NCBI RefSeq assembly: GCF_022606355.1
Contig: NZ_JAHHZQ010000004.1
Coordinates: 496,001 to 560,000 of the forward strand
Direction of reading: 5' to 3'
Origin: Leifsonia shinshuensis
Lineage (GTDB): Bacteria > Actinomycetota > Actinomycetes > Actinomycetales > Microbacteriaceae
Length of the DNA stretch: 64,000 nt
Shown here: one piece after another, positions 21,618 to 22,742 of the stretch
Layout: every line of letters begins with the position of its first letter
Numbering within the stretch: the stretch's first letter is position 1
Translations under genes and position numbers: made by a program
Notes under the pieces: model-generated
Seen by the model: the letters and a program-made list of their open reading frames with translations, nothing else
Database searches by the model: none
What the model was told of the DNA's origin: nothing

Positions 21618-22625
21618 ATGGACATCGACCTCAGCGTCTTGCGTCTCATGGAGCGCGAGAAGGAGATCCCGTTCGACGAGCTTGTGCAGATCATCGAGCA
21701 GGCCATCCTGACCGCGTATCTCAAGCACACCAACCAGGCCGACCACCGTCACGGGCACAGCGACCAGCCGCCCGCCGCGCGCGTGCACCTGGACCGCAAG
21801 ACCGGGCATGTCACCGTTTACGTTCCCGAGCACGACGACGAGGGCAACGTCATCGGCGAGGCCGAGGACAGCCCGAGCGACTTCGGGCGCATCGCTGCGT
21901 TCGCGGCCAAGCAGGTGATCAACCAGCGGCTGCGCGATATCGCCGACGACGCGGTGCTCGGCGAGTTCCGCGGTCGCGAGGGCGACATCGTCGCCGGCAT
22001 CATCCAGCAGGGCCCCAACCCCCGCATGGTGCACATCGATCTGGGCAGCGTGGAGGCCATCCTGCCGCCCGAGGAGCAGGTGCCCGGCGAGGAGTACACG
22101 CACGGTTCCCGGATCCGCGTCTACGTCACCAGCGTCGCCAAGGGTGCGAAGGGGCCGTCGATCACGGTCTCGCGCACGCACCCGGCGCTCGTCCGCAAGC
22201 TGTTCGCCCTGGAGGTCCCGGAGATCGCCAGCGGCATCGTCGAGATCGTCTCGCTCGCCCGCGAGGCAGGACACCGCACCAAGATCGCCGTTCGTGCGAC
22301 GGAACCGGGCGTGAACGCCAAGGGCGCCTGCATCGGCGAGCTCGGTCAGCGTGTGCGCGCCGTGACCGCCGAGCTCAACAACGAGAAGATCGACATCGTC
22401 GACTACTCGCCCGATCTCGCGACCTTCGTCTCGAGCGCGCTCTCGCCGGCCAAGGTGACAAGCGCGTTCGTCATCGACGAGTCGCTCAAGGCGGTGCGTG
22501 CCCTCGTGCCCGACTACCAGCTGTCGCTGGCCATCGGCAAGGAGGGGCAGAACGCGCGCCTCGCGGCGAAGCTGACGGGCGCGAAGATCGACATCCAGCC
22601 CGATTCGATTCTGGACGACAAGTAA
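21618..22625 (+). CDS. nusA: Transcription termination/antitermination protein NusA
   Basis: Binds RNA polymerase and nascent RNA to control pausing, termination and antitermination. 335 residues: N-terminal polymerase-binding domain, S1 domain (about 130-195), KH1 (RTKIAVRATEPGVNAKGACIGELGQRVRA region) and KH2 (LAIGKEGQNARLAAKLTGAKI). It lacks the C-terminal acidic repeats of E. coli NusA, as is usual in actinobacteria. Strong ribosome-binding site GAGGAGG. rimP, usually upstream of nusA, is not here. Its 3' end is part of an inverted and direct repeat that could feed back on operon expression. Confidence 0.95.
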   Translation: MDIDLSVLRLMEREKEIPFDELVQIIEQAILTAYLKHTNQADHRHGHSDQPPAARVHLDRKTGHVTVYVPEHDDEGNVIGEAEDSPSDFGRIAAFAAKQVINQRLRDIADDAVLGEFRGREGDIVAGIIQQGPNPRMVHIDLGSVEAILPPEEQVPGEEYTHGSRIRVYVTSVAKGAKGPSITVSRTHPALVRKLFALEVPEIASGIVEIVSLAREAGHRTKIAVRATEPGVNAKGACIGELGQRVRAVTAELNNEKIDIVDYSPDLATFVSSALSPAKVTSAFVIDESLKAVRALVPDYQLSLAIGKEGQNARLAAKLTGAKIDIQPDSILDDK

Positions 22626-22654
22626 GGAGAGGGCTGGATGTCGATCTTCGCGCC
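22578..22654 (+). promoter_or_regulatory. 24-bp hairpin across the nusA stop codon
   Basis: Bases 22578-22601 (inside nusA) and 22631-22654 are perfect 24-nt reverse complements; the 29-nt loop contains the nusA stop and an SD-like AGGAGAG. The right arm can also pair with 22706-22718 (13 bp), so two mutually exclusive structures exist, as in an attenuator. There is no T run after either stem. Confidence 0.7.
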
Positions 22655-22742
22655 GTGCCGACGGGGCGAAGCCGTGGCGACACGGTTGCCGAAGGCACAT
22701 GAAAACGACATCCAGCCCGATTCGATTCTGGACGACAAGTAA
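22589..22742 (+). repeat. 37-bp direct repeat of the nusA 3' end
   Basis: Bases 22589-22625, the last codons and stop of nusA, recur exactly at 22706-22742, 80 bases further on. The segment between carries the inverted 24-bp copy described separately. The simplest history is a 117-bp insertion made by local template switching. Confidence 0.9.

What the first reader, a model, noticed from the sequence alone, without database searches (positions are those of the whole stretch)
22578..22742. Fold-back duplication behind nusA makes two mutually exclusive hairpins
The last 37 bp of nusA with its stop recur exactly 80 bases downstream, and the segment between holds a perfect 24-bp inverted copy of the nusA end. 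Arm 22631-22654 can pair with 22578-22601 (24 bp, the stop codon in the loop) or with 22706-22718 (13 bp). The first fold needs ribosomes off the nusA end, the second is favoured while they translate it, which is attenuator logic at the start of ylxR-infB. NusA itself acts on hairpin-dependent termination, so feedback is possible. It may also be just a template-switch scar.
Basis: partly seen in the sequence, partly recalled or inferred. Interest (0 to 1): 0.7.

Follow-up and report, generated by a model that had tools for sequence, protein, structure and literature searches.

The report
Structured tail-copy repeat behind nusA
Just behind the gene nusA this actinobacterium carries a short hairpin-forming repeat that holds a backward and a forward copy of the gene's own end, and related bacteria of the same family carry versions of it, so it is a recurring, possibly functional element and not a one-off copying accident.

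Summary
The repeats and pairings are as described, but they are no private scar. The same build (antisense arm of the nusA end, GC hairpin, forward copy of the NusA tail with stop) follows nusA in 7 of 28 congeneric genomes, with a remnant in an eighth. An arm is present in 30 of 216 Microbacteriaceae nusA ends read (a non-random sample), in 14 of 71 genera. The arm tracks each genome's own codons. In 15 selected copies the hairpin covaries yet keeps two mismatches. In Leifsonia its core diverges 0-32% where nusA four-fold sites diverge 17-54%. The forward copy differs from the real tail by 24 synonymous against 2 non-synonymous codons.

The attenuator idea is weak: the exact arm:copy run is under 9 bp in 17 of 25 genomes, and in two Leifsonia the element sits beside nusA although a convergent gene separates it from infB.

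Best reading: a lineage-specific structured 3' end of nusA mRNA whose repeat unit carries the gene's own tail, so that gain or loss of a unit spares NusA. Its molecular role is inferred, not shown.

The parts
21618..22625 (+). nusA coding sequence (host gene of the element)
   Evidence: ORF of 335 aa; Pfam NusA_N, KH_5, KH_2
22578..22601 (+). left arm of stem H1, inside nusA codons
   Evidence: 24-bp perfect inverted repeat
22589..22625 (+). copy A of the NusA tail with stop codon (the coding copy)
   Evidence: 37-bp direct repeat
22631..22654 (+). antisense arm of H1, starting 5 bases after the stop; in relatives the arm tracks each genome's own nusA codons
22652..22686 (+). P2 hairpin (6 bp, C.A mismatch, 2 bp, A.G mismatch, 6 bp, loop); in this genome one inner pair is broken (G.G)
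   Evidence: alignment A3 and pair counts
22687..22697 (+). small hairpin TGCC-GAA-GGCA next to P2 (Leifsonia copies)
   Evidence: helix 4 of alignment A2, all cells with letters paired
22706..22742 (+). copy B of the NusA tail with stop codon (non-coding position; coding-like divergence in relatives)
   Evidence: 24 synonymous and 2 non-synonymous codon differences over 25 genomes
22638..22742 (+). possible 34-aa reading frame ending in copy B; the frame reaches back to the arm in only 14 of 25 genomes

Best explanation
This is one member of a cis element, so far seen only in Microbacteriaceae, fixed to the 3' end of nusA. SHOWN: a full unit is [antisense arm of the last nusA codons]-[GC hairpin P2]-[forward copy of the NusA tail with stop]; genomes carry none, one, or one and a whole or partial second unit, and some only the arm and hairpin. 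The arm stays complementary to the host's own codons, the hairpin covaries and in Leifsonia and g78 changes more slowly than nusA silent sites, and the forward copy diverges like a coding tail. INFERRED: in the mRNA the arm folds onto the nusA end when ribosomes have left it (H1) and lies beside P2, giving a structured 3' end whose state depends on translation of the last nusA codons; it probably sets processing, stability or read-through of the nusA end. Template switching re-copies the arm from nusA, and tandem slippage adds or removes units. Because a full unit ends in an intact tail and stop, gain or loss does not damage NusA, which lets the element come and go.
For: Model R1 hits 17 of 299 family genomes at E 0.05 or less; 11 of these (our own included) lie directly behind nusA, G070 at 3.5e-14. 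An arm in 30 of 216 nusA ends, 14 of 71 genera. At 46 cells where nusA departs from the family majority the arm fits its own nusA in 40 and the majority base in 3; own pairing 285 of 294 cells against 219 on average and at most 239 in 2000 permutations (rows were chosen for having an arm). P2 in 15 selected rows (12 distinct): 98.8% paired, covariation 0.304 against 0.122 shuffled and at most 0.079 slid. The two internal mismatches are never Watson-Crick: C.A 9, U.G 4, C.C 2; A.G 12, G.A 2, U.U 1. Core divergence 0-32% against 17-54% at four-fold sites in 21 Leifsonia pairs; 2-5% against 22-42% in g78. Spacers from stop to arm are 2-12 nt and dissimilar in the 7 Leifsonia. In g78, G221 and G268 differ at 3 nusA bases opposite the arm, all matched by the arm, with 2 of 62 differences in the adjoining core. 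A second arm (whole or partial second unit) in G070, G323, G353, G149, G198, G084, G103; a decayed one in G207.
Against: No RNA or phenotype data. Most genomes read lack the element, so it is dispensable. Recent lateral spread could also explain a slow-changing core. G085-G156 show equal divergence (7% and 7%), and divergent Leucobacter pairs reach 27-42% in the core. The 15 P2 rows were picked because they share the shape; the other cores were not counted. Two of five covariation measures do not beat shuffling (pairs with double change 4 against 3.0, reached in 35 of 500; pair types 8 against 7.5, reached in 254 of 500). In the window genome P2 has a G.G mismatch and the minimum-energy fold is another one. 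Mean core energy z is -2.1, with 18 of 41 below -2. G.U against A.C mismatches in H1 (12 against 3 distinct, 16 others) do not decide, since silent C-to-T changes bias that way.
Confidence: 0.5

Rival explanations
1. Non-functional mutational product: a palindromic tandem repeat at a template-switch hotspot. The arm is perfected by quasipalindrome template switching, the tail copy by slippage; nothing is selected but NusA.
For: Arm and tail copies track nusA; second arms occur; sporadic presence. Template switching can create hairpin stems and may help maintain them (PMC8794818; abstract, opening and discussion read; its authors call the maintenance role less clear). Another gene end in the window (43088-43177) has a plain tail duplication with a 57-base period.
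Against: P2 keeps two mismatches that palindrome perfecting would remove, and in Leifsonia and g78 the core diverges less than silent sites while the Leifsonia spacer beside it does not stay alike.
Confidence: 0.27
2. A laterally moving insertion: [tail A + arm + P2] enters insert-free nusA genes by recombination at the conserved tail; copy B is the displaced native tail.
For: A and B differ almost only synonymously, stop-codon swaps included, as two coding lineages would. Patchy on the nusA tree. In G007 copy B is 1 and copy A 5 differences from the nearest insert-free relative. G010 and G042 share copy A but not copy B.
Against: Other rows are neutral or point the other way (G208: A 1, B 4; G042: A 3, B 5). 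Tail residues of A and B agree in 23 of 25 genomes although tails vary between species. R1 hits away from nusA are weak (6 genomes, E 0.002-0.05). No Y1 transposase in 50 genomes of which 23 bear the element; reverse transcriptase in 3 of those 23 and 6 of 27 others.
Confidence: 0.13
3. Transcription attenuator for ylxR-infB with two mutually exclusive hairpins read by ribosomes at the nusA end.
For: Both pairings are possible in the window: -88.6 kcal/mol for 22570-22750, -62.0 from the stop on, -40.6 with a ribosome placed on the stop. Arm:copy runs of 9 bp or more in 8 of 25 genomes.
Against: Arm:copy run under 9 bp in 17 of 25 genomes; element kept in G005 and G012 where a convergent gene lies before infB; no T-tailed terminator in the window region.
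Confidence: 0.07
4. A small protein: 22638-22742 would encode 34 aa ending in the NusA tail, explaining why copy B stays coding-like.
For: Open in six of the seven Leifsonia copies and in G070.
Against: The frame reaches the arm in only 14 of 25 genomes, and some of these show no start codon near the arm; in G207, G257, G406 and G386 a stop sits directly before copy B.
Confidence: 0.03

Closest known systems
Template-switch-born RNA hairpins (PMC8794818; abstract, opening and discussion read) and quasipalindrome mutation hotspots (search listing)
   Same: Reverse-complement copy beside its source; arm changes that match the source
   Different: Here one arm lies in protein-coding DNA, the element recurs at one locus over a family, carries a forward gene-tail copy, and its hairpin keeps mismatches
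Ribosome-read transcription attenuators (recalled)
   Same: Alternative pairings of one arm, one of them open to masking by ribosomes
   Different: Competitor pairing mostly short in relatives, no T-tailed terminator found, downstream operon can be separated
REP/REPIN palindromes moved by RAYT Y1 transposases (recalled)
   Same: Short imperfect palindromes with internal mismatches, neighbouring units
   Different: No second strong copy in the own genome, only weak R1 hits away from nusA, no Y1 transposase in 50 genomes
Integrative elements that restore the 3' end of their target gene (recalled)
   Same: Direct repeat of a gene tail with stop at both borders
   Different: 80 bases between the copies in the window, far too short for an integrase gene, and an arm copied from the host gene

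Membership tests
Transcription attenuator (ribosome-mediated) | two mutually exclusive pairings conserved in relatives | tested here: not met
   25 genomes chosen by tail copy: arm:nusA run of 9 bp or more in 23, arm:copy B in 8
Transcription attenuator (ribosome-mediated) | terminator hairpin with T tail before the regulated gene | tested here: not met
   0 found in window 22400-23250; stops without a T tail or Rho-dependent ones are not covered
Transcription attenuator (ribosome-mediated) | translation-dependent RNA 3' ends | not testable with these tools
   needs term-seq
Described RNA family (Rfam 15) | match above a family's gathering score | tested here: not met
   three hits of 12.2-19.2 bits for gathering scores of 66-153
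Structured RNA element | covarying base pairs at fixed places | tested here: met
   7 sequences, 5 pairs with double changes; 12 distinct of 15 selected rows, covariation 0.304 against 0.122; structure taken from the same sets, and two of five measures do not beat shuffling
REP/REPIN with RAYT | Y1 transposase in the genome | tested here: not met
   0 of 50 genomes; control rings in 5 of 14
REP/REPIN with RAYT | many dispersed copies | tested here: not met
   own genome: one hit at 1.6e-22, next 0.325 (same locus, other strand) and 1.62
Template-switch product | reverse-complement copy of adjacent sequence whose changes follow the source | tested here: met
   g78 pair G221/G268; single-event origin not tested

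The most novel reading that the evidence does not exclude
H1 plus P2 is a new class of cis-acting RNA built partly from the coding end of its own gene, which senses whether ribosomes, or NusA itself, occupy the nusA end and so adjusts nusA expression; its repeat unit carries a spare gene tail, making it a regulatory module that can be added or deleted without harming the protein.
Probability: 0.22. Interest if true: 0.78.

Novelty: new variant of a known kind. Interest (0 to 1): 0.6.

Why it matters
It is a natural case where RNA-structure selection, template-switch homogenisation and coding constraint may act on the same few dozen bases, over many genera and at one locus. The arm follows silent codon changes in nusA, so it offers a direct test of whether compensatory changes arise step by step or by re-copying, a question raised in PMC8794818. 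If functional, it would be an undescribed regulatory RNA (in the searches made) of a core transcription factor gene in Actinobacteria.

Tried and rejected
Assembly artefact: rejected, same build in one-contig genomes. Rfam match: none above a gathering score. Phage or plasmid origin: no blastn match in 50,697 phage or 72,556 plasmid records, with the tool's note that near records may be left out; one hairpin pattern over viral contigs found 0. Small ORF as general cause: 14 of 25 only. Y1 transposase or reverse transcriptase as mobiliser: 0 of 50, and 3 of 23 with against 6 of 27 others. 'A imported, B native' test: inconclusive. G.U against A.C in H1: inconclusive. Order-wide search with R1: 1 of 297 genomes, our own, at E 0.001 with strict filters, so distant forms may be missed. 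The first alignment of the element had G010 in the wrong orientation and a duplicate row; redone. Six R1 hits away from nusA (G148, G229, G089, G227, G311, G134; E 0.002-0.05) showed no nusA end beside them and were not followed. One search stopped with an index error after printing most rows and was redone.

Print status: nusA + Microbacteriaceae + inverted repeat gave 0 papers; nusA + Leifsonia + repeat gave 2 (listing only); at least three of Microbacteriaceae, noncoding RNA, Leifsonia, Rfam gave 3 (listing only); nusA + ylxR + infB + attenuat gave 1 (listing only); YlxR + RNase P + RNA-binding gave 3 (listing only). No listing pointed to the element; the papers of these listings were not read, and only this library was searched.

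Sampling limits: the 216 nusA ends are not random. They are 27 Leifsonia plus genomes from the best-scoring listed part (not all of the listed places were fetched) and from 78 handles that I chose (not all fetched). Ten element-bearing genomes were read from loci that one search had brought in, so prevalence is likely overstated. Dropped before counting: G010 (nusA split over two contigs; added by hand), the ALI-44-B locus (same record as G156), and G160, G091, G153, G088 whose end did not match my search motif. G109 and G310 pass the score but carry another repeat and are left out of the 30. The 11 loci chosen by the pattern are not in the 216. In one search four g51 pairs gave only 1-2 usable sites because tails differ in length and are ignored, and the G005 core was cut to 45 bases by my motif.

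Full report
Observation. The window holds nusA (21618-22625), ylxR and infB. The last 37 bases of nusA with the stop recur at 22706-22742, and a perfect 24-bp reverse complement of 22578-22601 lies at 22631-22654; 13 bases of that arm can also pair with the downstream copy. RNA folding gives -94.4 kcal/mol against -68.5 in shuffles.

Relatives. The window's genome is a Leifsonia by kinship: same-genus handles match named Leifsonia contigs in length and place. In the genus, 7 of 28 genomes hold the insert and an eighth a truncated one; on a nusA tree they are scattered. A covariance model of the seven copies hit 17 of 299 family genomes at E 0.05 or less; 11 of these (ours included) lie directly behind nusA, in three of them with two units in a row, and 6 lie elsewhere and are weak. 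A pattern scan of one genome per species returned 21 stretches: Leifsonia, Leucobacter, Microcella, Okibacterium, Herbiconiux, Labedella, Amnibacterium, a Microbacterium and an unclassified Microbacteriaceae member (that these genera belong to one family is recalled). I then collected nusA ends over the family. Of 227 ends read, 43 have an arm score of 13 or more (null maximum 11 in 400 shuffles). Of the 216 that came from genome handles, 32 do; two of these carry a different repeat, leaving 30, in 14 of 71 genera. The sample is not random and includes genomes first found by the model. An order-wide model search found only our own genome among 297.

Anatomy. A full unit is arm, GC hairpin, short linker, tail copy B; some genomes have arm and hairpin but no copy. 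In the rows printed the arm begins within 18 bases of the stop. It follows the host's own synonymous codons: in 40 of 46 informative cells it fits its own nusA, in 3 the family majority. In 15 rows that I selected for sharing one shape (seven Leifsonia, G070, a Herbiconiux, two g23 and four g51 genomes) P2 has 6 bp, mismatch, 2 bp, mismatch, 6 bp, with 98.8% of cells paired and covariation 0.304 against 0.122 in shuffles; two of the five measures do not beat shuffling. The outer mismatch is C.A in 9, U.G in 4 and C.C in 2; the inner is A.G in 12, G.A in 2 and U.U in 1. Palindrome perfecting would erase such mismatches, so their persistence speaks for selection on a shape. Leucobacter copies form hairpins of a different build. 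In the window genome one inner P2 pair is itself broken and the minimum-energy fold differs.

Rates. In the 21 Leifsonia pairs the core (P2 plus linker) differs by 0-32% where nusA four-fold sites differ by 17-54%; the core values of 20% and more all involve G012. In genus g78 it is 2-5% against 22-42%. The spacer between stop and arm, inside the same unit, is 2-12 bases long and dissimilar in the seven Leifsonia, which argues against recent transfer of the whole unit as the only cause. Exceptions are one pair with equal rates (G085-G156) and divergent Leucobacter pairs (27-42%).

The tail copy. In 25 genomes with a long copy, 12 copies are identical to the nusA tail from ATCCAG (or ATTCAG) to the stop; the rest show 24 synonymous codon differences (stop-codon changes included) and 2 non-synonymous ones, where random single changes would be about 80% non-synonymous. 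Copy B is therefore, or was recently, a coding tail, though it now lies behind a stop. It is not generally the end of a small ORF (14 of 25). Two readings remain: units turn over so that B is often put back into the coding place, or the insert recently entered an insert-free gene by recombination. A comparison with insert-free relatives did not decide.

Mechanism. Shown: a foldable element attached to nusA, with concerted change of arm and tail. Inferred: H1 forms when ribosomes have cleared the nusA end, H1 and P2 make a structured mRNA end, and processing, stability or read-through of nusA is affected. The proposed ylxR-infB switch is weak. In the 25 genomes the arm:nusA run is 9 bp or more in 23 and the arm:copy run in 8; G208 is the one where the copy pairs better. 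G005 and G012 keep the element beside nusA although a convergent CWB2-domain gene (ORFs of about 860 aa) lies before infB; G009 has such an arrangement without the element; a YlxR-like frame follows that gene in G005 and G009 and was not found by the same motif in G012. No T-tailed terminator is seen in the window region. Mobility by a Y1 transposase or a reverse transcriptase is not supported.

Novelty. No Rfam family fits and the literature searches made listed nothing that describes it. Closest in kind are template-switch-born hairpins (PMC8794818; abstract, opening and discussion read). The new points are the fixed locus over a family, an arm that pairs with coding sequence and tracks its codons, the hairpin with kept mismatches, and a repeat unit that carries the gene's own tail.

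Noticed in passing
window 43088-43177: A second gene end in the window is tandemly duplicated: the last residues and stop of a 197-aa ORF (42548-43141) recur 57 bases on, without an inverted arm; the second copy carries a substitution and a 1-base deletion.
   Followed up: partly
L223 (G109) and L248 (G310), behind nusA: In genus g83 the nusA tail is repeated in another way: G109 shows a tandem repeat of about 35 bases holding the tail CTCGACGAGGA, with no P2 hairpin; G310 shows one such copy.
   Followed up: no
L065 (G005), L066 (G012), L070 (G009): A convergent gene lies between nusA and infB in some Leifsonia; in G005 and G012 it carries CWB2 cell-wall-binding domains; a YlxR-like frame follows it in G005 and G009.
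   Followed up: partly
G010 C13/C22, G255 C1, G386 C1, G042 C24: Contig ends fall in or near the nusA element in several assemblies, so unit numbers there may be undercounted.
   Followed up: no
L118, L104, L113 (Leucobacter): In three Leucobacter the downstream tail copy is split by a further GC-rich hairpin-like insertion.
   Followed up: no
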